51,979 nucleotides of DNA from a virus. The translations under genes and the position numbers were made by a program. This document shows, one piece after another, positions 7,294 to 27,386 of the stretch. Within the stretch, counting starts at the first letter, position 1, and each line of letters begins with the position of its first letter. The notes under the pieces are model-generated. The model was given only the letters and a program-made list of their open reading frames with translations, was not told where the DNA came from and searched no databases. The stretch covers positions 1-51,979 of IMG/VR virus record IMGVR_UViG_3300020420_000555. One strand, 5' to 3'.

Positions 7294-7716
7294 ATGTTAA
7301 CAAGTACAACTGTTCCAACAGTCAAGGGTAAAGTTAGACCTTTACACGATCGACTGATAGTAGCCGAAATGGAATTCGGTGAAGTTACCACTGCAGGTGG
7401 TATTATACTTCCAAGTGACGATGGCAAAGATGTAGGTATTAAACCTAGATGGGCCAAAGTTGTTGTGAAGGGGCATGAGAATAAAGAAGAATACGGTGAA
7501 GGCGATTGGGTATTAGTAGTACATGGTCGTTGGAGTAGAGGATTCAAAGTTCAAGAAGAAGATGACAGCGAACCTGTTATTTTAAGGACTGTTGAAGCAG
7601 AAGGTGTGTTAGGTTGGAGCAAAGAGGCTCCAAGCGATTTAGCATACTATAACAACCAAGCCGTTGTAAATCTAGAAAACAATATCTCGGCTAAAGACTT
7701 TGCAAAAGAGGAATAA
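7294..7716 (+). CDS. GroES-like co-chaperonin (functional analogue of T4 gp31)
   Basis: A 140-residue protein. KVRPLHDRLIVAEMEFGE then TTAGGIILP (about residues 9-37) is the Cpn10 signature: first beta strands, then the mobile loop that docks GroEL. A dome-type strand pair follows (WAKVVVKG, EGDWVLVVHGRW). It is longer than the ~95-residue GroES. T4 gp31 and phage RB49 CocO replace GroES so that host GroEL can fold the major capsid protein; a similar role is expected here. It starts 3 nt after the preceding stop and is followed immediately by the MazG gene. Confidence 0.85.
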   Translation: MLTSTTVPTVKGKVRPLHDRLIVAEMEFGEVTTAGGIILPSDDGKDVGIKPRWAKVVVKGHENKEEYGEGDWVLVVHGRWSRGFKVQEEDDSEPVILRTVEAEGVLGWSKEAPSDLAYYNNQAVVNLENNISAKDFAKEE

Positions 7717-9287: not shown

Positions 9288-9622
9288 TGACATATCTAGT
9301 TAACGACAACTGTATTAAATGCAAACATACGGATTGTGTTGAGGTTTGTCCTGTTGATTGTTTTTACGAAGGCGAGAATATGCTTGTTATTAATCCTGAT
9401 GAATGTATTGACTGTGGTGTATGTGTTCCTGAATGTCCGGTAGATGCAATCATTACTGAAGCAGAAGATCCAGAACAAAAATGGTATCATGTTAATTTAG
9501 AATTCAGCAACAAGTGGCCAGTCATTACAGAAAAGAAAGACCCTTTACCAGAAGCAGAAGAATATGCTAATATCACAGATAAGTATGATAAACACTTCAG
9601 TGATAAATCTGGTGGAGACTAA
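9287..9622 (+). CDS. fdxA: Seven-iron ferredoxin (FdxA type)
   Basis: A 111-residue protein with the FdxA / Azotobacter FdI pattern almost intact: [14 protein letters not shown] and [12 protein letters not shown]. By that model C9, C17 and C50 bind a [3Fe-4S] cluster and C21, C40, C43 and C46 a [4Fe-4S] cluster, with C12 and C25 extra. The C-terminal part ([12 protein letters not shown]) also matches the family, so this is a full-length protein, not a fragment. It would be a cytoplasmic one-electron carrier. Overlaps gp44 by 1 nt (TAATG). The resemblance to alphaproteobacterial FdxA suggests capture from the host lineage. Partners could include the radical-SAM QueE at 45227 or host reductases; that is inference. 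Confidence 0.9.
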
Positions 9623-9957
9623 TGGAAATAAAAAAACTTAGAGCAAGTCATATACTCTTAAGTCATGCAGAAGCAAAATGGACAACCAACCATCGTGCTA
9701 AACCCCTAGCAGAACAAGAAGCATATAACGTAATACAAGATATCGCGGAAGGTTTACTTACATTCCATCAAGCGGCTAAAGAATTTAGTGCCTGCAGAGT
9801 AAGTGCAAAGAGCGGCGGAGATTTGGGTTGGTTTGACTATCCTGGAGAAATGGAATATCCACTTGCCCATGCAGTTAGTACTATGCAAAAAGATACAATG
9901 TTAGGTGTGCCAATTGAAACAGAGTTTGGCTACCATGTTATTCTAAGGACAGGGTAA
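9622..9957 (+). CDS. Parvulin-type peptidyl-prolyl isomerase (PpiC-like)
   Basis: A 111-residue single rotamase domain. It has the opening LRASHILLSHAEA, the central FHQAAKEFSACRVSAKSGGD, then LGWFDYPGEME, and the closing PIETEFGYHVILRTG, all in family order, including the SxC position and the terminal FGYH histidine. There is no signal peptide or membrane anchor, so it acts in the cytoplasm. It would speed proline isomerisation during folding of phage or host proteins and fits the other folding factors here (GroES, DnaJ, ClpA). Overlaps both neighbours by 1 nt. Confidence 0.85.
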   Translation: MEIKKLRASHILLSHAEAKWTTNHRAKPLAEQEAYNVIQDIAEGLLTFHQAAKEFSACRVSAKSGGDLGWFDYPGEMEYPLAHAVSTMQKDTMLGVPIETEFGYHVILRTG

Positions 9958-15095: not shown

Positions 15096-15232
15096 TAAAG
15101 TATTGTCAGAACTGTGGCAGAGCCCATGAGGGCAGATTAATCGAAGAATTCAAGGACGGTGATAACAAACCTATCGAAATAGTGGTTTGCGAACACGCAA
15201 GATACGAGGAAGAAGATGGAAAAAGTAGTTAA
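15092..15232 (+). CDS. Small zinc-ribbon-like protein
   Basis: A 46-residue ORF starting ATG at 15092, overlapping the endolysin stop (ATGA) and running 17 nt into the acyl-carrier-like gene. It has a CQNCGRAH pair (C5, C8) and a second VVCEHA pair (C33, H35), spacing suitable for one Zn ion. The tight coupling on both sides supports it as a real gene. Function unknown. Confidence 0.6.
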   Translation: MIKYCQNCGRAHEGRLIEEFKDGDNKPIEIVVCEHARYEEEDGKSS

Positions 15233-15440
15233 AGCAATAGCAGAACATTTAGACGTTGATGCGTCTAAGGTCGTACCAGGAGCATCTTTGATAGATGACT
15301 TAGGTGCTGACGACTTTGATATCGTTGAACTTACCATTGCGATACAAAACGCAACAGGTACAAGCATTTCAACTGAAGAAGAAGCCAACGTAAAGACAGT
15401 TGGCGACTTTATTAAAATAGTGGAGAGCAAGAGTGTTTAG
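15216..15440 (+). CDS. Acyl carrier protein-like, lacking the phosphopantetheine serine
   Basis: A 74-residue, acidic four-helix protein with clear ACP similarity: LDVDASKVVPGASLIDDLGA, then IVELTIAI. At the conserved D-S-L site where 4'-phosphopantetheine is attached, the sequence reads G-A-D-D-F-D, placing Asp (D33) where Ser should be. The protein therefore cannot carry an acyl group in the usual way. It may be a decoy or binding partner that mimics host ACP towards ACP-binding enzymes, or it may stabilise another protein. It sits in the lysis cassette, which hints at envelope lipid metabolism, but that is inference. Confidence 0.85.
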   Translation: MEKVVKAIAEHLDVDASKVVPGASLIDDLGADDFDIVELTIAIQNATGTSISTEEEANVKTVGDFIKIVESKSV

Positions 15441-17512: not shown

Positions 17513-18385
17513 ATGGATTATTACGACACTTTAGGCGTTCCTCGAAACGCATCGCAATCGGATATTAAAAAAGCATACAAAAAACAAAGTATGCAACACC
17601 ACCCTGATCGCACAGGTGGCGATGACACCAAATTCAAAGATGTAAATGAAGCCTATCAAGTATTAAGTAATTCAGAAAAGAAACAAATGTACGATCAATT
17701 TGGAACTGCTGATCCCCAACAAGCAGGATTCAATCCAAACCAAGGAGGTCAACAGTTTCATTTTAATATGGGACAAGGCCAAGGCTTTGAAGATGTATTT
17801 GCTTCATTTTTTGGGGGTAATCAAGGACCTTTTAGACAGCAAAGGCAAGTTAGAAATAGGGACATAACTATCGCTTGTGATATAGACTTATCAGATGTGT
17901 ATAAAGGCAAAGGTGTCATAGCAACATTTAGAACACATTCGGGTAGAGAAGAAACAGTTAATATAGATATACCGGTTGGAGCAAAGGCAGGAGATAATAT
18001 TAGATTTGAAGGGTTAGGAGATGACAGTATTGCTCAAGTACCAAGAGGTAATCTAATAGTAAAAGTTCGTTTTAGAAGACATCCAGAATATGATGTACAT
18101 GGTATTAATTTAGAAACTACCAAAACATTAAACATATTTGATTTAATATGCGGTACAACCGTAAATATAGCAACACCTGAAGGCAGAGAGTTAAATATTA
18201 ATGTACCGGCGGGCACACAACCTGGAACAACAATGAGTTTATCAGGTGCAGGACTTCCTGACTATCGCACTGGTACGAAAGGTAACATCTTCTTAAGGTT
18301 AAATGGAATGGTTCCAAAAAACATAACAGAAGAACAAAAAAAGATATTATTAAAGATTAAAAATGAAACTAATTTATCATCCTAA
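17513..18385 (+). CDS. dnaJ: DnaJ/CbpA-like co-chaperone
   Basis: A 290-residue J-protein. The J domain (1-65) has the HPD motif (30-32). A Gly/Phe/Gln-rich linker (about 70-112, with FHFNMGQGQGFEDVFASFFG) follows, and then two C-terminal peptide-binding beta domains. It lacks the CxxCxGxG zinc repeats, so it is type II, like CbpA. It would stimulate host DnaK. It heads an early operon with peptide deformylase and ClpA and overlaps the deformylase by 23 nt. Confidence 0.92.
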   Translation: MDYYDTLGVPRNASQSDIKKAYKKQSMQHHPDRTGGDDTKFKDVNEAYQVLSNSEKKQMYDQFGTADPQQAGFNPNQGGQQFHFNMGQGQGFEDVFASFFGGNQGPFRQQRQVRNRDITIACDIDLSDVYKGKGVIATFRTHSGREETVNIDIPVGAKAGDNIRFEGLGDDSIAQVPRGNLIVKVRFRRHPEYDVHGINLETTKTLNIFDLICGTTVNIATPEGRELNINVPAGTQPGTTMSLSGAGLPDYRTGTKGNIFLRLNGMVPKNITEEQKKILLKIKNETNLSS

Positions 18386-18887
18386 TAACTGGCTACAAGA
18401 AAAAGTCAAGCCTTTTGACTTTGAAAAACATGATGCTAAAAAGATATCTGAAGAGATGATTAGCATTATGGAAAAGAATAACGGTGTAGGACTTGCTTCA
18501 AACCAAGTTGAACTAGATGCACAAATTTTTATTATTAAACCTACAGGATTAAAAGACAATGAGGAAGATAAACCATTTGCAATTATTAATCCTAAGATAG
18601 CCGCAGTAACAGAAGACATGGAACAAGGTGTTGAAGGTTGTTTAAGTTTTCCAGGATTGTACTTAAAGGTAAACAGACCTAAGGGTTTGGTGGTAGAGTA
18701 TCTTGACATTGACGCAAAAGAGTGTAAAATAGAGTTACAAGGTTGGAATGCTAGAATATTTGGTCATGAATATGATCACTTGTTTGGTATTAATTTCATA
18801 GACAGAGTAAGCAAGTTGAGATTAGATATGGCTAAGAAGAAACAGAAAAAATTATTTAAGAAATATAAGGTGGATATTAAATGGTAG
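18363..18887 (+). CDS. def: Peptide deformylase
   Basis: A 174-residue metalloenzyme with all three motifs: GVGLASNQ (41-48; Ser replaces the second Ala of the usual GxGLAAxQ), EGCLS (91-95, metal Cys93) and HEYDH (135-139, two metal His and the catalytic Glu). It removes the formyl group from nascent N-terminal Met. Full length, unlike the shortened cyanophage enzymes that lack the C-terminal helix. It may keep phage protein maturation going late in infection. Overlaps both neighbours (23 nt and 7 nt). Confidence 0.95.
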   Translation: MKLIYHPNNWLQEKVKPFDFEKHDAKKISEEMISIMEKNNGVGLASNQVELDAQIFIIKPTGLKDNEEDKPFAIINPKIAAVTEDMEQGVEGCLSFPGLYLKVNRPKGLVVEYLDIDAKECKIELQGWNARIFGHEYDHLFGINFIDRVSKLRLDMAKKKQKKLFKKYKVDIKW

Positions 18888-21121
18888 AACCAAGTGAAGG
18901 ATTACAGTTAGTTTTTGATAAAGCATTAAGTGATGCCAAGAAGTTAAAACATGAATACGTCACTTTAGAGCATATGGTATATGCAATGCTTTGTGTAGAG
19001 AGTTTTGAAAAGATCGTAGACGGTTACGGTGCTGACGTTAATCAAATGAAAGCAGGCCTAGAAGCATATCTAAAAGGTCCTGACTGTGAAGATTTGAAAA
19101 CAAATGCCGCTAAATTTAAACCTAAGAAGACTGCAACTGTAGAAAGAGTTTTAAACAGAGCATTTACTCAAGTATTGTTTAGTGGTAGACATTTAATTGA
19201 AATTACTGATGTATTCATAAGTGTTATGAATGAGAAAAAGGCATGGGCATATTATCATATTACTAAATCAGGAGTTGAAAAGGAAAAATTTGCTGAGTAT
19301 ATCAGCAGTGAAGTTGATGCACAATACGAAGATGAAGAACTAAGAGGTGTTGCATTAAGAGCCTTACGAGAATATACTTCCGATCTTAATAAAGAGGTTA
19401 CAGATAGTAAAATTGATCCTGTAATCGGACGTAATGAAGAATTAGAATCAATAGCATTAGCACTAGGACGTAGACAAAAGAGTAACGTATTACTAGTAGG
19501 TGATCCAGGTGTGGGTAAAACTGCTATTGCTGAAGGACTTGCATTTAATATTGTTAATAAAGCAGTTCCAGAGTTTCTGCAAGAGTATAAAGTTTATAAT
19601 TTAGATATAAGTGCTATGTTGGCTGGATCTAAATACCGTGGAGACTTTGAAGAAAGATTTAAACTTGTTATGGCAGGTATTAAAAAGCAAGGCAAAACTA
19701 TTGTATTCATAGATGAAGCACACATGATTAGTGGTGCAGGTGCAGGTGGACAAAATAGTTCAACTGATCTTGCTAATATGTTAAAGCCTGCATTAGGAAA
19801 AGGTGATATTAAAGTCATTGCATCAACTACTTGGGAAGAATATAGAAAGTATTTTGAAAAAGACAGAGCATTGATGAGAAGATTCCAACGTGTAACAGTT
19901 GATGAACCTACTAATGAAGTTACACTAGATATACTTAAAGGTATTAGAAAGTATTACGAAGACTATCATGCTACACAAATTACTGATGAAGCATTAAAGA
20001 GTGCTATCAAACTATCAGTTAAGTACCAAGCAGATAAGAAACTTCCAGACAAGGCTATTGATTTAATAGATCTAGCCTGTGCAAGGTTCAAACTTAAAAA
20101 GATTGAAGGACATAAAATTGTAGACACTGAACAAGTACAATTTGAATTAGCAAAAGCAGTGAAATTACCTGCGGAACAAGTACAACAAAAAGAAACAAGC
20201 AATCTTGCTAACTTAGACAGCAATCTTAAAAAGGTTGTGTTTGGACAAGAGAAAGCAATAGATGAAATCGTAGAAAAAATACTTGTTGCCCAAGCAGGAC
20301 TTAAAGTAGATAACAAACCAATTGGGTCGTTTGTGTTTATGGGTCCAACTGGTGTAGGAAAAACTGAAACTGCAAAACGTCTAGCAGAAGAACTATCTGT
20401 TAAACTTGTAAGATTCGATATGTCAGAGTATCAAGAAAAACACGCAGTCGCAAAACTTATTGGATCACCTCCAGGGTATGTAGGTTATGAAGAAAATGCA
20501 GGATTATTAATTACTAAATTACAAGAAAATCCAAACTGTGTCTTGCTTTTAGATGAAGTTGAAAAAGCACACCCTGATGTATCACAAATATTATTGCAAA
20601 TAATGGACAATGGAAAGATTACTGGAAGCAACGGTAAAGAAGCCGACGCAAGAAACTCGGTTCTAATCCTAACTACAAACTTAGGTGCGGAGCAGGCTGA
20701 GAAAAATGCGATCGGCTTCAATCAAGATTCAGATATGGATTACGAAGATACTGAACTAAAACGTTATTTTGCACCAGAGTTTAGAAATAGACTTGATGGT
20801 GTAATAGCATTTGGCAAACTTGACAAGAATGTAATGATTAAGATTGTAGGCAAGTTCCTATTAGAACTTAAGAATATGCTTGTTGATAAAGATATCAAAG
20901 TAACCATAGATGATACTGCAATAGATTACTTGGTAGAAAAAGGCTTCGATGCTAAAATGGGTGCAAGACCACTACAACGTGTAATTGATAAAGAGATCAA
21001 AACAGATCTAAGTAAAATGGTATTGTTTGGTGCTCTTAAAAATGGTGGTGTACTACATATTAACATTACAGATGACAAGATCGACTTGCAGGTCAAAGAA
21101 ACTAAACTTGTAGAAGCATAG
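18881..21121 (+). CDS. clpA: ClpA-type Hsp100 AAA+ unfoldase
   Basis: A 746-residue protein with a Clp N-domain (about 1-145), first AAA+ module with Walker A GDPGVGKT (207-214) and second with Walker A GPTGVGKT (488-495), then a C-terminal D2-small domain. It lacks the long coiled-coil middle domain of ClpB. An IGF tripeptide (611-613) is at the place of the ClpP-docking loop of ClpA, so it is predicted to use host ClpP; no clpP is in the window. It could redirect host proteolysis during infection. Last gene of the dnaJ operon. Confidence 0.92.
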   Translation: MVEPSEGLQLVFDKALSDAKKLKHEYVTLEHMVYAMLCVESFEKIVDGYGADVNQMKAGLEAYLKGPDCEDLKTNAAKFKPKKTATVERVLNRAFTQVLFSGRHLIEITDVFISVMNEKKAWAYYHITKSGVEKEKFAEYISSEVDAQYEDEELRGVALRALREYTSDLNKEVTDSKIDPVIGRNEELESIALALGRRQKSNVLLVGDPGVGKTAIAEGLAFNIVNKAVPEFLQEYKVYNLDISAMLAGSKYRGDFEERFKLVMAGIKKQGKTIVFIDEAHMISGAGAGGQNSSTDLANMLKPALGKGDIKVIASTTWEEYRKYFEKDRALMRRFQRVTVDEPTNEVTLDILKGIRKYYEDYHATQITDEALKSAIKLSVKYQADKKLPDKAIDLIDLACARFKLKKIEGHKIVDTEQVQFELAKAVKLPAEQVQQKETSNLANLDSNLKKVVFGQEKAIDEIVEKILVAQAGLKVDNKPIGSFVFMGPTGVGKTETAKRLAEELSVKLVRFDMSEYQEKHAVAKLIGSPPGYVGYEENAGLLITKLQENPNCVLLLDEVEKAHPDVSQILLQIMDNGKITGSNGKEADARNSVLILTTNLGAEQAEKNAIGFNQDSDMDYEDTELKRYFAPEFRNRLDGVIAFGKLDKNVMIKIVGKFLLELKNMLVDKDIKVTIDDTAIDYLVEKGFDAKMGARPLQRVIDKEIKTDLSKMVLFGALKNGGVLHINITDDKIDLQVKETKLVEA

Positions 21122-21799: not shown

Positions 21800-22159
21800 A
21801 TGAAAAATTTTAAAGAATATCTTTCAGAGTCAATCTACAAAGAAGAAACATATGAAGGTGACGACTTCTTTGAAACATATGGCGTATTATGGTTCAATGA
21901 AGATGATGTCGTTGATGAAGCAGAATATCAAGGACGTAAAGTAAAACTAGGCAAGCCAATGCGTGGCGATGTCAAAAAGTTTAAAGTTTATGTTAAAGAC
22001 CCAAAAACAAAGAACGTTAAAAAAGTAAACTTTGGTGATCCTAATATGAAAATTAAAAAGTCTAATCCAGCACGTAGAAGAAGTTTCCGTGCAAGACATA
22101 ATTGCGATAATCCAGGCCCAAGAACAAAAGCAAGATATTGGTCTTGCAGGAAGTGGTAA
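21800..22159 (+). CDS. Putative capsid-targeted basic protein
   Basis: A 119-residue protein starting at the ATG at 21800, preceded by AAGGGGAAT; an upstream GTG in frame would lie inside the late promoter. The N-terminus MKNFKEYLSES closely resembles the T4 capsid-targeting sequence (MKTYxEFxxE), with LSE as possible prohead-protease site. A strongly basic C-terminal module (KSNPARRRSFRARHNCDNPG, then KARYWSCRKW) is one I recall in many phage proteins as a small domain with conserved Cys and Trp. Could be an internal head protein that binds DNA. Function inferred. Confidence 0.55.
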   Translation: MKNFKEYLSESIYKEETYEGDDFFETYGVLWFNEDDVVDEAEYQGRKVKLGKPMRGDVKKFKVYVKDPKTKNVKKVNFGDPNMKIKKSNPARRRSFRARHNCDNPGPRTKARYWSCRKW

Positions 22160-22160
22160 T

Positions 22161-22496
22161 ATGAAACTAAAAGAATTTACCGATATCGATTTAGATAAAA
22201 AAAATGATATAGGATATGACATAGTTGATGACTTAAAATGTCATATGCGTGATGATCCTATGTTCTACAGAAAATTATACTATCCTTGTATGGCACAATT
22301 AAAAGATAGTTATGATAAAGGCGATCACAATTTTACTGGTGTTGCTGAAATGGTAGAAAAAGCAATACATCATTATTGTAAAAAATATGATCTTATCCAA
22401 TCCCCAACAGAACTCTTGACAAAAGAAGATAAAGATGCTCTAATACAAGAAATATATAACGAAGAGTTAGAAGAAGTAAAAAAAGGCGAATACTAA
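22161..22496 (+). CDS. Small protein with head-targeting-like N-terminus
   Basis: A 111-residue protein from ATG 22161, one nt after the previous stop. MKLKEFTDIDL starts it, similar to the basic/hydrophobic/Glu openings of its neighbours. The rest is helical and acidic (MRDDPMFYRKLYYPCMAQLK, then VEKAIHHYCKKY). No enzyme motif. Abuts the next gene with no gap. Confidence 0.5.
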   Translation: MKLKEFTDIDLDKKNDIGYDIVDDLKCHMRDDPMFYRKLYYPCMAQLKDSYDKGDHNFTGVAEMVEKAIHHYCKKYDLIQSPTELLTKEDKDALIQEIYNEELEEVKKGEY

Positions 22497-23363
22497 ATGC
22501 TTTTAAGAGAGATAACATCACCTAATAAAACTGTCAGTTTTGCATTAGGAAGACTAAACCCTGCAACAACAGGACACGGACTTCTTGTTGAAGCAGTAAG
22601 ACAAGGACCTGGTGATGCTATTTTATTCTTAACAGACCGTCCAGCAAAACTTCCTACAGATCCACTTAACCCAAATGAAAAATTAGATTGGGCCAGAAAA
22701 AGTTTTCCAGATATTAAAATAGAACTTGCAAAAAATATTATGTTTGCCGCTAGTGATTTATATGCTAGAGGATATAGAGGTGTAACTTTTTTTGAAGGTG
22801 AAGATAAGTTAGGTAATCTATTAGAAAAATACAATGGACAAAAATCTGCACATGGTTTTTTTGAATTTGATGAAATAAAATTTGAAAGATTATCACGTAA
22901 TCCTGATGCCGAAGATGCCTCAGGCATGAGTGCAAGTAAATTAAGACAGGCAGTAATAGCCAAAGACTTTGATGCGTTTAATAAAGGTGTTACAAAATCT
23001 GCACAACCATATGCTAAAAAAATGTTTGATAATTTATCAACTATATTAGGTAGCACAGAAGAAAACTTAGAAGAACTAGTAGTAAAACAACAGAAGCCTA
23101 AACTAGATGTACTTAATAACATAGCAAGTAGAAAAGATAATCAACCTTTTCCTTTAAGTTGGAATGCAGACGACAATGAAATCAAAGTAGGCGGTAAAGT
23201 ATATGTTACACCACAAGAAGCAAATAAATTTTTACGTTTTTATGATGGCAGATCAGAAGACGAACAAGAACTTATGCAAAAGGCATTAAGAAGTGCAAAG
23301 ACAACAGTCAATTTATTTAAAAATTTAAATTTTAAATTTACAACTGCACAAGAAAGTATTTAA
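22497..23363 (+). CDS. Cytidylyltransferase-like nucleotidyltransferase
   Basis: A 288-residue protein. FALGRLNPATTGHGLLVEAV (about 16-35) is the nucleotidyltransferase signature (GRFxPxxxGH, with T/HxGH) of the NMNAT/FAD-synthetase/PPAT superfamily. The second motif is in the GMSASKLRQAV region (residues ~143-153; consensus ISSTxxR). A C-terminal ~110-residue region is unlike these enzymes and mixed. It would transfer a nucleotide from an NTP to a phosphate; NAD biosynthesis or a virion-delivered enzyme is possible. The N-terminus MLLREITSPNK fits the head-targeting-like set around it. Confidence 0.75.
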   Translation: MLLREITSPNKTVSFALGRLNPATTGHGLLVEAVRQGPGDAILFLTDRPAKLPTDPLNPNEKLDWARKSFPDIKIELAKNIMFAASDLYARGYRGVTFFEGEDKLGNLLEKYNGQKSAHGFFEFDEIKFERLSRNPDAEDASGMSASKLRQAVIAKDFDAFNKGVTKSAQPYAKKMFDNLSTILGSTEENLEELVVKQQKPKLDVLNNIASRKDNQPFPLSWNADDNEIKVGGKVYVTPQEANKFLRFYDGRSEDEQELMQKALRSAKTTVNLFKNLNFKFTTAQESI

Positions 23364-23591
23364 ATGGATATTGCAGACTTAAAAAAACTAGCAGGTATTC
23401 CAGAATATACAGGACAACATCCTGTTACTTCTGAAGATATCAACATTAGTCATACTGCAACTGCACTGAAGCAGAAAGAAAGAGAACTTGGTCTTAAGCC
23501 AGGGGATCAAGAATGGTTCAAACTTTGGTTTGGACTTCCTAAAATGACAGGTATGAATATGCCTAAAGGTTTTAGAGGAAGGAAGAAATGA
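23364..23591 (+). CDS. Small basic-tailed protein, unknown
   Basis: A 75-residue protein. N-terminal MDIADLKKLAGI; a short helix (HTATALKQKERELGLKPG); then WFKLWFGLPKMTGMNMPKGF and a basic RGRKK end. Directly abuts the cytidylyltransferase gene and overlaps the lipoprotein gene by 4 nt. No known function. Confidence 0.5.
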   Translation: MDIADLKKLAGIPEYTGQHPVTSEDINISHTATALKQKERELGLKPGDQEWFKLWFGLPKMTGMNMPKGFRGRKK

Positions 23592-23782
23592 AAATATTAG
23601 CAATACTAATTACAGGATTGATGTTAGCATCTTGCAGTGGACATATTGTACCACCAAGTGTTAAATTAGGCAAAAAATGTACCGTTGCAGAGGATGGACA
23701 AATAGTTTATTCTTATGTATGGTTACATAAAAAAGGTGAAGAACTTACCGCAAACGCAAAAACTTGTGAAAAGATAAAATAA
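23588..23782 (+). CDS. Small lipoprotein
   Basis: A 64-residue protein with a signal peptide (ILAILITGLMLASC, lipobox LASC, C16) and a mature part with two Cys that could pair. Overlaps the gene before by 4 nt (ATGA) and precedes the next by 1 nt. Phage lipoproteins often block superinfection or act in lysis; nothing here decides. Confidence 0.6.
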   Translation: MKILAILITGLMLASCSGHIVPPSVKLGKKCTVAEDGQIVYSYVWLHKKGEELTANAKTCEKIK

Positions 23783-23783
23783 A

Positions 23784-25247
23784 ATGAAATTACGCGAACT
23801 TTATGAGCATGGTGGAAGAATTGTAAAAGGTGTAAACACTACTCCTGATGTTGGCGTGAATCAAATACCAATAGAAGCAGGGAAGTTTGGCTTTAAAGTA
23901 GACAAAGACGGACGGCCTCCAGAACTTAACAAAAAGGCAAGAAAAAATTCTAGTCCAAACACATTATTTAATTTAGGTTTAGCAGAAAGTAAGATAGACG
24001 AAATTAAAGCAAAGGAGTTATCAAGTTCATCAGAGATATTTGTAGATATGGATGGTGTGCTTGTTGATTTCTTTGGTGCATGGACTAAACTTATGAAAGT
24101 TAAAAAGTGGTTTCAAATTAAAAATGTAGAAAAAGGTCTACAAAAAGTAAGAGATACCGAAGACTTTTGGCTTAACTTAAAACCTACTAAGAACGCAGAT
24201 AAATTATTAGGAATCATTAAAAACATTAAAGGTGAATATAATATTTTATCGGCTCCATTAGCAGATGATCCGAGAGCAGAACCAGATAAACGTGCTTGGG
24301 TAGAGAAATACTTAAAGGCATTTCCACCTAAGAAGGTTATCATTACTGCAAACAAACAAGCATACGCAAAACAAAAAGATGGAACTCCAAATATCTTAAT
24401 TGATGACTTTGGACAAAACGTGAAAAAATGGGAAGGCGCAGGTGGCGTTGGATTCAAACATAAAGACCATAAGTTCGAAAGAACTGCAAGTAGTCTTAAA
24501 CAATACTTTGAAAAACCAGCAACTGAAGGCGACTTAATTCCACTTCCAAAAAATAGTGTTTCAGTAGATTCAGATGCTACTGATTACGACTTTATGAAGT
24601 TAGGACGTAACATGGCCAATATAGCAACAACTAATCCAGATGATGCTAATATGGGTGACCAAGATATTATGTTAAACTTCTTCGGAGGTGAAAAAGAAAA
24701 GAAACATATGGTATCCAACCTTAAAAGATTAGGTTACAAGGTTGGTGATGTAAGTGGTTATCAAGACCACAACTTTGACCCAGAACCCACTAAAGGCAAT
24801 CCGCCGCCACAAATACATTCCAAAGACGTGGACGGTAAACTTGGTAAAATGAAGATCGCTCTCATTACACCAGTACAAAAGGATAGATCCTTTAGTAAAC
24901 TAGCGAAACAATATCGTAATGTTCAATTGGATGAATATAACCCGATCGTTGTTGACCGCAAAGGACGTATTTGTAACGGACATCATAGATACGATGCACT
25001 ACGCCTGCTAGATCACGAGTATGCTTTGGTAAAAATGGTAGATACATACTTGGAAGACATCATGAGCGAAAACTTTGCGGATGGCAAGAAGCCTGGACGG
25101 AAAGGCCTTAGCAAGAGAGTTGGAATACCAAAAAAGGCTTCCATAAGCCAACTGAGTAAAATTGCTAAATCTAGTTCAGGAGAGAAGAGGCGCATGGCCC
25201 AGTGGCAGTTAAATATGCGTAGAGGCAAGGCAAAAAAAGGTAAATAG
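23784..25247 (+). CDS. HAD phosphatase / ParB-like two-domain protein with basic C-terminus
   Basis: A 487-residue multi-domain protein. Residues ~85-245 form a HAD-type 5'-nucleotidase domain: IFVDMDGVLVDFFGAWTKLM (DxDGV nucleophile motif), then NILSAPLADDP and NILIDDFGQNVKKW (motif IV DD). Residues ~320-420 contain a ParB/Srx-like motif, VQLDEYNPIVVDRKGRICNG followed by HHRYDALR. The final ~55 residues are a strongly basic module (GRKGLSKRVGIPKKASISQL, then RRMAQWQLNMRRGK) known from other phage proteins. MKLRELYEHGG at the N-terminus fits the head-targeting-like set. A multi-enzyme cargo protein is plausible. Confidence 0.7.
   Translation: MKLRELYEHGGRIVKGVNTTPDVGVNQIPIEAGKFGFKVDKDGRPPELNKKARKNSSPNTLFNLGLAESKIDEIKAKELSSSSEIFVDMDGVLVDFFGAWTKLMKVKKWFQIKNVEKGLQKVRDTEDFWLNLKPTKNADKLLGIIKNIKGEYNILSAPLADDPRAEPDKRAWVEKYLKAFPPKKVIITANKQAYAKQKDGTPNILIDDFGQNVKKWEGAGGVGFKHKDHKFERTASSLKQYFEKPATEGDLIPLPKNSVSVDSDATDYDFMKLGRNMANIATTNPDDANMGDQDIMLNFFGGEKEKKHMVSNLKRLGYKVGDVSGYQDHNFDPEPTKGNPPPQIHSKDVDGKLGKMKIALITPVQKDRSFSKLAKQYRNVQLDEYNPIVVDRKGRICNGHHRYDALRLLDHEYALVKMVDTYLEDIMSENFADGKKPGRKGLSKRVGIPKKASISQLSKIAKSSSGEKRRMAQWQLNMRRGKAKKGK
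25239..25246 (+). promoter_or_regulatory. Late-promoter-like GGTAAATA
   Basis: GGTAAATA ends 5 nt before the ATG at 25252, the same geometry as GATAAATA before 2261 and 21140. It differs by one base and overlaps the previous stop region, so confidence is low. Confidence 0.35.
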
Positions 25248-25251
25248 TAGT

Positions 25252-26109
25252 ATGAGACTAAGAGAATTAACATCGGTAAAGGAAAACCCTTTAGCACCAA
25301 AACCTACTATGGCTCAACAGGCCGCAGGTGCAGTCAAAAAAACTGTAAACAAAGTAGGACAAGGCGCTAAAATGGCCGCACAGAAGATGGGTGCAAAAGG
25401 TACTGGTGGTATGATGGCAAAAGGTTTAGATAAACTTGCATCAGGCGGTGCTTTGACAGGTAATTTATCCAAGCAAATTGCTCCATTTGCCAAGCAACTA
25501 TCTACTATATTAGCAGATACTACACTTAGAAACAAATTTATGATGCTTGTAAAACAAGCAGAAGCAGGTGCTAAAAAGCAGGCGGCACAACCACAAGCAG
25601 GACAACCTCAAGCACAACCACAAGCAGGACAACCTCAAGCACAACCACAAATGCAAACGCAAAGCATGGAGGAAGATCCTTTTAACGATGAAGTTAATAA
25701 CATACTTAAAAAACATCCAGAAGCAACTGCAAAAATGAAATCAACAGGTGATGTAAATGATATTTACAACACTGATTTATACATGGATTTATTTACACAC
25801 TATCAACAAGATATGCCATACGGCACACAAAAAGCAAGAGATGGTGATCCAGTACAATTTATACAAGACGAATTAGATGAATTAGGCATATTTGATGATA
25901 ACGAAATGGCTGAAGCGGCAACACCAGGTGCCACTAGTGCAGGTTCAATAGCAACTGTGGCTAATCCTATAACTGCTTATGCTAAAGTTAAAAAAGATGG
26001 CAAAGGTGTTCCTAAAGCAGACCAAAAGAAAACTCCTAAAGGAACAGCCGTAAATGCACTTGATATGAAGGGTGCAAGTCTATTTGGCGGAAACATACAA
26101 AAGAGGTAA
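25252..26109 (+). CDS. Putative internal head protein with Gln/Pro repeats
   Basis: A 285-residue protein. It opens MRLRELTSVKENP (head-targeting-like, with possible LRE and VKE cleavage sites), then a basic, Ala/Gly/Met-rich amphipathic stretch (about 20-110; KKTVNKVGQGAKMAAQKMGA), a QPQAGQPQAQ repeat (about 113-138), an acidic middle and a basic Lys-rich C-terminus (KVKKDGKGVPKADQKKTPKG). No enzyme motif. The basic amphipathic part could bind DNA or membrane, as expected of an ejected internal protein. Inference only. Confidence 0.5.
   Translation: MRLRELTSVKENPLAPKPTMAQQAAGAVKKTVNKVGQGAKMAAQKMGAKGTGGMMAKGLDKLASGGALTGNLSKQIAPFAKQLSTILADTTLRNKFMMLVKQAEAGAKKQAAQPQAGQPQAQPQAGQPQAQPQMQTQSMEEDPFNDEVNNILKKHPEATAKMKSTGDVNDIYNTDLYMDLFTHYQQDMPYGTQKARDGDPVQFIQDELDELGIFDDNEMAEAATPGATSAGSIATVANPITAYAKVKKDGKGVPKADQKKTPKGTAVNALDMKGASLFGGNIQKR
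25586..25650 (+). repeat. 27-bp tandem repeat inside coding sequence
   Basis: Two perfect copies of a 27-nt unit (25586-25612, 25613-25639) and an 11-nt partial third, encoding QPQAG/QPQAQ blocks of the head-protein candidate. Copy number could vary by slippage. Confidence 0.85.
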
Positions 26110-26112
26110 ATA
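26105..26112 (+). promoter_or_regulatory. Late-promoter-like GGTAAATA
   Basis: GGTAAATA ends 5 nt before the ATG at 26118 and overlaps the stop of the previous gene. Same geometry as 25239, so low confidence. Confidence 0.35.
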
Positions 26113-26117
26113 CTGTT

Positions 26118-26885
26118 ATGAAAGAGAAAGAACTTAAAAACGAAGGTTTAGCAGATTTGGCTTATAAGGCAGAAGCCGATCATGAAGTACAAATGGCTCG
26201 TGCTGAATTGTACAAAATTGGAAAGTATGCAATTAAATTACATGAGATGCTTAAAGGTGTTTCAGAACAAGATGGTTTAGAAGGTTGGGTACAATCTAAA
26301 ATTACAAAAGCAGGCGATTACCTAAGCAGTGTATATCATCATATGGATTACGAACAAAAGTTCGAGCAAGTTCAAACTGAAGCAAAAGCGAAACCAGACT
26401 TTTTAGACATGGACAAAGATGGCGATAAAAAAGAGCCAATGAAGAAAGCAGTCAAAGACAAAGAAGAGAAAAAAGATAAAAAAGAATCGACGGATTATAA
26501 GTCCGGACTTACAGAAGAACTAAACAAAGTTCTTTCAAAAAAAAAGACTGAACGTTCTCTAACTAAACCCGAAGAAAAGAAAAAAGAAAAATACGTTAAA
26601 GGTATGAAAAAAGCCAAAGGCGATTTCAAAGATCGTTATGGTGATGATGCTGAAGCAGTAATGTACGCAACTGCAACTAAAATGGCAAAGAAAGAATCTG
26701 TTTTAGAAGATTACGTAAACAAACCAATCACAGAAGAAGAATTCGAAAAACTAGCAGAAAAGAAAGATGCTTGTTACCACAAAGTAAAATCAAGATATAA
26801 AGTATGGCCAAGTGCATACGCCTCTGGTGCTCTAGTTCAATGCAGAAAAAAAGGTGCAAAGAACTGGGGAAACAAGAGTAAGTAG
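26118..26885 (+). CDS. Lys/Glu-rich protein, putative head core or cargo protein
   Basis: A 255-residue protein. The N-terminal domain (about 10-90) is helical: AEADHEVQMARAELYKIGKY, and LEGWVQSKITKAGDYLSSVY. A DMDKDGDKKEPM motif looks like a single Ca-binding loop (about residue 96). A long Lys/Glu-rich linker follows. The C-terminal part carries two modules I recall in other phage proteins: YGDDAEAVMYATATKMAKKE, and the Cys/Trp-containing ACYHKVKSRYKVWPSAYASG. Composition resembles T4-like scaffold or core proteins. Function inferred from composition and position. Confidence 0.55.
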   Translation: MKEKELKNEGLADLAYKAEADHEVQMARAELYKIGKYAIKLHEMLKGVSEQDGLEGWVQSKITKAGDYLSSVYHHMDYEQKFEQVQTEAKAKPDFLDMDKDGDKKEPMKKAVKDKEEKKDKKESTDYKSGLTEELNKVLSKKKTERSLTKPEEKKKEKYVKGMKKAKGDFKDRYGDDAEAVMYATATKMAKKESVLEDYVNKPITEEEFEKLAEKKDACYHKVKSRYKVWPSAYASGALVQCRKKGAKNWGNKSK

Positions 26886-27386
26886 ATGCGTTTCCTAGAG
26901 TTCAAAAGAGATACCCACTGTTCACCCAAGTGTTGTGGTGCCAATGTAAAAAGAGAAGACTGTGGTTGCAAACCAGACTGTCCACATTGTAATTGTAATG
27001 CTGAAATAGACGAAGGAACACGTTGTTGGAAGGGTTACGAAAAGAAGGGCATGAAGACCATGTTCGGAAAACGTGTACCTAACTGTGTTAAAAGAGAAGA
27101 CATAGACTTTTGTGTCAACTGTGGAGACATACTATTTGCAGAAGGATTAGATGAAAACCTTAAAAAATGGTTTAAAGACAAATGGGTGCGTTTCGGACCA
27201 GATGGAAAGATCAGAGGAGACTGTGCAAGGGGTTCAAGCAGTGAAGGAAAGCCTAAATGCTTACCAAGAAGCAAAGCACAATCCTTAGGTAAAAAAGGAC
27301 GTAAGACAGCCGCAAGTAGAAAACGTCGTGAAGATCCTAATAAGAATAGACGCGGTAAAGCCAAGAACGTTAAGACAAAATCATAA
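26886..27386 (+). CDS. Cysteine-rich basic protein, putative head cargo
   Basis: A 166-residue protein. MRFLEFKRD at the N-terminus is followed by a Cys-rich stretch (about 10-40, with HCSPKCCGANVKREDCGCKP and CPHCNCN; 9 Cys) that could bind Zn. A CWKGYEKKGMKTMFGKRVPN module is next, and then a very basic C-terminal half (KWVRFGPDGKIRGDCARGSS, then RKTAASRKRREDPNKNRRGK). These last modules recur as tails on various phage proteins. Likely binds DNA in the head; inference. Confidence 0.55.
   Translation: MRFLEFKRDTHCSPKCCGANVKREDCGCKPDCPHCNCNAEIDEGTRCWKGYEKKGMKTMFGKRVPNCVKREDIDFCVNCGDILFAEGLDENLKKWFKDKWVRFGPDGKIRGDCARGSSSEGKPKCLPRSKAQSLGKKGRKTAASRKRREDPNKNRRGKAKNVKTKS

What the first reader, a model, noticed from the sequence alone, without database searches (positions are those of the whole stretch)
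21800..27386. A run of proteins with T4-like capsid-targeting N-termini and basic C-terminal modules
Openings include MKNFKEYLSE, MKLKEF, MLLREITSP, MKLREL, MRLRELTSVKE and MRFLEFK. T4 internal proteins use a similar ~10-residue tag (MKTYxEFxxE) cut after (L/I)xE; most of these have an LxE. The products include a cytidylyltransferase, a HAD/ParB-like protein, an amphipathic Ala-rich protein and a Cys-rich basic protein. Several end in basic Cys/Trp or Lys/Arg modules. Together they look like a set of packaged and injected cargo proteins, some enzymatic.
Basis: inference. Interest (0 to 1): 0.75.

Follow-up and report, generated by a model that had tools for sequence, protein, structure and literature searches.

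The report
Tagged virion cargo of marine phages
A marine T4-like phage carries a gene block whose unrelated proteins mostly begin with the same short address label, much like the one phage T4 uses to load proteins into its head, and relatives of several of them have been found by mass spectrometry in purified cyanophage particles, so the block most likely encodes proteins shipped inside the virus.

Summary
In the window only 2 of 9 ORFs have L/I-x-E ending at residues 8-11; two ORFs (22161, 23364) belong to families without it and 23588 is lipoprotein-like. Across 80 related contigs the six other families carry it in 97 of 154 distinct N-termini, against 3 of 240 in background genes. Two tags occur: the T4 register on 21800, and a shorter M-x-L-R-E-L-[FY]-E on the rest, joined to about ten unrelated sequences and shared with a gene beside the portal. 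Large relatives encode T4-like gp21 and gp23. Eight genes of three cyanophages with published virion proteomes match window proteins 22497, 26118 or 26886; all eight are virion proteins (chance about 1e-6). Unexpectedly, 25252-26109 contains a copy of the mature capsid protein's N-terminal arm; in four of seven phages tested one non-capsid protein resembles the arm of its own capsid protein. Most likely this is a modular cargo set comparable to T4 internal proteins. Packaging rests on homology; cleavage and injection are inferred. New variant of a known kind.

The parts
21800..22159 (+). Cargo protein with strict T4-register tag MKNFKEYLSE|S; C-terminal basic Cys/Trp module SFRARHNC...YWSC (phrog_7595)
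   Evidence: family has tag I in 25/39 members and LxE at residues 8-11 in 19/29; related C-terminal module in Melnitz and HTVC008M proteins
22161..22496 (+). Conserved 111-aa protein, MKLKEF start; family lacks LxE (1/38), so targeting is doubtful
22497..23363 (+). NMNAT/cytidylyltransferase-like cargo; tag II (relatives MFLRELFE|AP; window MLLREITS lacks the E); nucleotidyltransferase motifs TTGH and SASKLR present
   Evidence: phrog_3041 E=1.2e-32; tag in relatives; homologues are MS virion proteins in S-CREM2, S-SZBM1, S-SCSM1
23364..23591 (+). 75-aa protein with MDIxxLxxLAGI start; family not tagged by the criterion used
   Evidence: 1/32
23588..23782 (+). Small lipoprotein-like ORF (hydrophobic start then LASC); not cargo-tagged
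   Evidence: sequence
23784..25247 (+). Tag II (MKLRELYE|H) + deoxyribonucleotidase-like HAD domain (about aa 84-230) + ParB-N/sulfiredoxin-like domain (about aa 340-420) + basic C-terminal module
25252..26109 (+). Ala-rich cargo with tag MRLRELTSVKE, containing a mimic of the mature capsid-protein N-arm
25912..25959 (+). Capsid-arm mimic EAATPGATSAGSIATV (aa 221-236); in 26 distinct copies the motif is preceded by E
26118..26885 (+). Cargo with LKE-type start in relatives (window MKEKELKNE); carries KPDFLDMDKDGDKKEPMKKA, VMYATATK and C-terminal CYHKVKSRYKVWPSAYASG modules
   Evidence: 75% identity over 55 aa to virion protein S-CREM2 gp160, E=6e-22; also S-SCSM1 ORF29 and ORF92, S-CREM2 gp111
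26886..27386 (+). Cys-rich basic cargo (MRFLEFK start) with EGTRCWKGYEKKGMKTMFGKRVPNCVK and KWVRFGPDGKIRGDC...KRREDPNKNRRGKAK modules
   Evidence: S-CREM2 gp160 E=1e-7, S-SCSM1 ORF29 E=8e-9, S-SZBM1 gp139 E=6e-4

Best explanation
The block 21800-27386 of a marine T4-like phage mainly encodes virion cargo comparable to T4 internal proteins. A short N-terminal tag, either the T4-register type (M-x-x-F-x-x-[FY]-L-x-E) or a shorter variant (M-x-L-R-E-L-[FY]-E), brings otherwise unrelated proteins into the prohead core; in most relatives the tag ends in L/I-x-E, the site at which a gp21-type protease would cut it off during maturation. The bodies are built by shuffling: a cytidylyltransferase/NMNAT-like enzyme, a deoxyribonucleotidase plus ParB-like domain, and small basic Cys/Trp modules that probably bind packaged DNA. 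One member adds a copy of the mature capsid protein's N-terminal arm, likely a second docking or cleavage element. The cargo would enter the cell with the DNA and act early on nucleotides, NAD or host nucleases. Shown: the tag and its conservation, module shuffling, the arm mimic, gp21 and gp23 in relatives, virion location of cyanophage homologues. Inferred: targeting by the tag, cleavage, DNA binding, injection, enzymatic roles.
For: Tag conserved across unrelated families: L/I-x-E at residues 8-11 in 97/154 N-termini of six window families against 3/240 background; about ten distinct downstream contexts; leave-one-family-out AUC 0.905-1.0, and in the 200-kb relative the seven best profile scores genome-wide all lie in the cluster. 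The signature M[IQ]LRE[LI]F starts the portal-adjacent gene in 14 of 16 distinct N-termini, the other two reading MTTLREIF. gp21 (S77 family, E=4e-27) and gp23 (E<1e-78) in both large relatives; their gp23 has LNE|TAGAGATSAG, an L-x-E. Virion proteomics: all eight cyanophage genes matching window proteins at E<1e-3 are MS virion proteins. T4-type tags on virion-detected enzymes: S-CREM2 SAM hydrolase MKDFDSFLEE, kinase MKRFDAFLTEE, cytidylyltransferase MKNFSSFLTEA, S-SCSM1 NMNAT MKSFLQFLKEA. Capsid-arm mimic: scores 61, 65, 95 and 85 against null maxima 49, 47, 51 and 52 in G002, G003, S-CREM2 and Syn33.
Against: In the window itself only 2 of 9 ORFs keep the cleavage motif. No proteomics exists for this phage or its close relatives; cyanophage homologues are distant (29-34% for the enzyme; modules only for the others), and 21800, 23784 and 25252 have no match in the three proteome genomes. 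The strict T4 tag predicts virion presence well in S-CREM2 (4/5) and S-SCSM1 (1/1) but not in S-SZBM1 (0/3). CsCl preparations can carry contaminants, as the proteomics authors note. The window is a fragment without gp21.
Confidence: 0.75

Rival explanations
1. The proteins are head or core structural parts (scaffold-like or DNA-condensing) that stay in the particle, not cargo that enters the cell.
For: The basic Cys/Trp modules dominate several genes, the capsid-arm mimic suggests capsid contact, and the same tag is on a portal-adjacent gene.
Against: Enzymatic domains with conserved motifs (nucleotidyltransferase, deoxyribonucleotidase) and strong variation of the block between relatives fit cargo better than a fixed structure.
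Confidence: 0.3
2. The proteins are ordinary late or auxiliary proteins; the similar N-termini reflect translation-start preferences or common descent of start regions, and virion detection is contamination.
For: Lysine-rich starts are common in AT-rich phages; proteomics authors raise contamination; most window copies lack the LxE.
Against: L3 and R4 are invariant with five synonymous codons each, background genes of the same contigs have the site in 3/240, and all eight homologous genes are in virion lists that hold only 14-24% of genes.
Confidence: 0.1
3. The tags target the prohead but are not protease sites in the window's phage; targeting and processing have become uncoupled.
For: Of the five window genes with a tag II-type start only one (23784) has L/I-x-E; in T4 IPIII targeting depends mainly on residues 4 and 7 and processing on 8 and 10.
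Against: E8 is kept in 31/35 cytidylyltransferase and 32/41 HAD/ParB starts of relatives, usually followed by A in the former.
Confidence: 0.2

Closest known systems
T4 internal proteins IPI-III and Alt with capsid targeting sequences (CTS)
   Same: Short N-terminal tag shared by otherwise unrelated proteins, L/I-x-E end, gp21-type protease in relatives, variable gene block; T4 Ip1-3 share only the leader (PMC12373910; PMC9026906)
   Different: Most tags here are a shorter LRELFE-type variant, bodies are enzymes and shuffled basic Cys/Trp modules rather than small restriction inhibitors, and one member mimics the capsid protein arm
Cytidylyltransferase/NMNAT of cyanophage virions (T4-GC190; S-SM1, S-SCSM1, S-SZBM1, S-CREM2, S-CBWM1)
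   Same: Homologous enzyme, found in purified virions; strict T4-type tag in S-CREM2, S-SCSM1 and Syn33, a looser one in S-SZBM1
   Different: The passages read do not link virion presence to a targeting tag and leave contamination open; the window's clade uses the shorter tag
Giant-phage (phiKZ, SPN3US) head proteins cleaved by gp21-like proteases
   Same: Large sets of head proteins cleaved after a short motif ending in E (PMC9026906)
   Different: phiKZ cleavage motif is S/A-x-E, and the cargo is unrelated

Membership tests
T4 internal protein / CTS cargo | Short N-terminal leader shared by otherwise non-homologous proteins | tested here: met
T4 internal protein / CTS cargo | T4 register: hydrophobic residues 4 and 7, L/I at 8, E at 10 | tested here: inconclusive
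   Met by 21800; the other tagged genes use a shorter register (hydrophobic at 3 and 6, E8 in relatives) and do not meet it literally
T4 internal protein / CTS cargo | L/I-x-E processing site at the end of the tag | tested here: inconclusive
   97/154 in relatives against 3/240 background, but only 2 of 9 in the window
T4 internal protein / CTS cargo | gp21-type prohead protease encoded by the same phage | tested here: inconclusive
   Found in two large relatives; the window is a fragment and holds none
T4 internal protein / CTS cargo | Present in the virion | not testable with these tools
   No proteomics for the window's phage; for cyanophage homologues 8 of 8 are virion proteins
T4 internal protein / CTS cargo | Cleaved N-terminus in mature particles; entry into the cell with DNA | not testable with these tools
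   needs N-terminal proteomics and infection assays
NMNAT/cytidylyltransferase-like (phrog_3041) | HMM match and nucleotidyltransferase motifs (T-x-G-H, S-x-S-x-x-R) | tested here: met
   E=1.2e-32; motifs TTGH and SASKLR in the sequence; substrate unknown
5'-deoxyribonucleotidase (NT5C, PF06941) | HMM match over the family cut-off and matching fold | tested here: met
   36.2 bits against cut-off 24.8; best PDB match 1q92

The most novel reading that the evidence does not exclude
Marine T4-like phages package a cargo protein that carries a copy of the mature N-terminal arm of their own major capsid protein, and the copy tracks the capsid protein of each lineage (GATSAG-type here, GPVAGFDPVM-type in cyanophages). 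It would be a second, capsid-mimicking docking or cleavage signal in addition to the N-terminal tag, a way of loading cargo not described for T4 in the papers read.
Probability: 0.45. Interest if true: 0.78.

Novelty: new variant of a known kind. Interest (0 to 1): 0.68.

Why it matters
Cyanophage virion proteomes repeatedly contain enzymes (NMNAT/cytidylyltransferase, SAM hydrolase, kinase) that authors could not tell from contamination. A T4-type targeting tag on several of them, and a related tag across a large group of uncultured marine T4-like phages, gives an independent sequence criterion for which proteins are packaged, and so predicts what very abundant ocean viruses deliver in the first minutes of infection. 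The capsid-arm mimic would, if functional, be a new loading or docking element.

Tried and rejected
Near nucleotide relatives in the phage collection: none. gp21 in the window itself: none, fragment. Strict T4 CTS as a genome-wide predictor of virion proteins: good in S-CREM2 (4/5 annotated tagged CDS against 48/214; Fisher P=0.012) and S-SCSM1 (1/1), fails in S-SZBM1 (0/3); not used as main evidence. Capsid-arm mimic in S-SZBM1 and HTVC008M: no significant hit; Melnitz top hit lies within the null range. A regex for tags on WPSAYASG-module proteins recovered only 5 of 33, so the regex is too narrow or many are untagged. PDB sequence search with the cytidylyltransferase: nothing. AlphaFold of the Cys-rich protein: poor model, mean pLDDT 48.5, not interpreted. 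tRNA and Rfam scans of the window: nothing. Families 19, 28, 39 and 51 in the larger count 117/183 were chosen partly by their tags, so the less biased figures 97/154 and 99/224 are quoted. An earlier count said the portal-adjacent signature is in all 16 N-termini; the correct count is 14 of 16.

Full report
Setting. The window is a 52-kb virus record of a marine T4-like phage; the annotated isolates that surface as relatives are Melnitz, HTVC008M and cyanophages. The region has no near nucleotide match in the phage collection, and the window holds no gp21.

The observation. The quoted N-termini are present. Taken alone, the window is weak evidence: L/I-x-E ending at residue 8-11 occurs in 2 of 9 ORFs of the block and 5 of 72 others, so the statement that most have an LxE is wrong here. 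The block also contains a lipoprotein-like ORF (23588) and two families (22161, 23364) without the site.

Relatives. A scan with the HAD/ParB protein gave 80 loci. Lined up by family, the same short start recurs on unrelated proteins: MFLRELFEA on the cytidylyltransferase, MRLRQLYED on the HAD/ParB protein, MLLRELIE on the TRCWKGYEKKG module, MRVLEIVE on a stand-alone copy of the ENFADGK module, and MTKTFKDYLKEA-like starts (T4 register) on the 21800 family. L/I-x-E at residues 8-11 is found in 97 of 154 distinct N-termini of the six window families so tagged, 99 of 224 if the two untagged families are added, and 3 of 240 in background families from the same contigs. Residue shuffles of the tagged families predict about 4-12%. 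A profile trained without the tested family separates it from background with AUC 0.905 to 1.0. About ten different downstream sequences follow the tag-with-E. Synonymous codon diversity at invariant residues shows selection on the peptide, not the DNA.

Link to the head. Two large relatives, 200 and 268 kb, carry gp21 and gp23 of T4 type. In the 200-kb genome the seven best tag scores all lie in the cargo cluster, in the 268-kb genome the four best do. Outside it, a short gene beside the portal begins MILRELFYFDKE or MTTLREIFYFDKE; among 16 distinct N-termini of its relatives 14 read M[IQ]LRE[LI]F. That this gene encodes a head-core protein is inferred from its position.

Virion evidence. Published MS virion proteins are listed for S-CREM2 and S-SZBM1 and marked in the S-SCSM1 record. 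Searching the window block against all ORFs of these three genomes gives eight matching genes at E<1e-3: S-CREM2 gp111, gp154, gp160; S-SZBM1 gp139, gp140; S-SCSM1 ORF29, ORF91, ORF92. All eight are virion proteins; by chance about 9e-7 (product of the terms, treating genes as independent). They match window proteins 22497, 26118 and 26886; 21800, 23784 and 25252 have no such match. S-CREM2 gp160 holds in one chain modules that in the window lie in 26118 and 26886, plus its own capsid-arm mimic. S-SM1 virions also contain the cytidylyltransferase (PMC3037559). Several virion-detected enzymes have textbook T4 tags: S-CREM2 MKNFSSFLTEA, MKDFDSFLEEF, MKRFDAFLTEE, S-SCSM1 MKSFLQFLKEA.

Capsid-arm mimic. 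By its sequence, mature gp23 of the relatives should start after LNE with TAGAGATSAGNVATL. A matching segment occurs in one other protein per genome, in the cargo cluster: scores 61 and 65 against null maxima 49 and 47; window 25252-26109 scores 53 with the G003 query (no separate null was run for the window). In 26 distinct copies the motif is always preceded by E. In S-CREM2 and Syn33, whose capsid arm is different, the corresponding proteins match their own arm (95 against 51; 85 against 52). S-SCSM1 ORF97, a 61-residue virion protein, is such an arm with a basic tail by inspection. S-SZBM1, Melnitz and HTVC008M gave no significant match.

Mechanism. By analogy with T4, where residues 4 and 7 of the CTS target and 8 and 10 allow processing (PMC9026906), the tag would bind the prohead core and be cut by gp21 after E. 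The bodies (nucleotidyltransferase; deoxyribonucleotidase plus ParB-N/sulfiredoxin-like fold; basic modules) would travel with the DNA. T4 internal proteins block type IV restriction enzymes (PMC12373910); here roles in early nucleotide or NAD metabolism and DNA protection are guesses.

Limits. Packaging of the window's own proteins, cleavage and injection were not tested; the clade has no proteomics. Part of the family choice was made after seeing the tags; the less biased counts are given. Starts in metagenomic loci were called by a simple script, which may misplace some. The literature search covered open-licence papers only, so prior recognition of these tags elsewhere cannot be excluded.

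Noticed in passing
S-CREM2 gp12 (L085:7704-10313, minus strand): A protein annotated as Cas9-like nuclease, MS-detected in virions, has a tag-like stretch RFASFMAEA near its N-terminus, suggesting a misplaced start or an internal tag.
   Followed up: no
S-SCSM1 ORF93 (L128:39627-39836): A 69-residue virion protein ends in RTFKEFLEYIE, which looks like the targeting tag placed at the C-terminus.
   Followed up: no
window 7294-7716, 9622-9957, 17513-18385, 18363-18887, 18881-21121: By reading, the window encodes GroES-like, parvulin-like, DnaJ-like, peptide deformylase-like and ClpA-like proteins, a large folding and proteolysis set.
   Followed up: no
window 15216-15440: Acyl carrier protein-like ORF (DDLGADDFDIVEL).
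   Followed up: no
L140-L219: The CYHKVKSRYKVWPSAYASG module is nearly invariant (94-100% over about 52 aa in many rows) across many viral contigs, also as mini-proteins of about 60 residues.
   Followed up: partly
S-SZBM1 gp191 and gp192 (L092:24311-25125, minus strand): Two adjacent small genes with textbook T4 tags (MKSFKSFLSES, MKTFKQYITEA) near the terminase genes that are not in the published MS list.
   Followed up: no
G002:27891-30867 and G003:107636-110318: Large genes near the head genes also score as tag-like (MKLQEVF, MKVHQIISE, MKLNEVI, MKINQIVTE).
   Followed up: no
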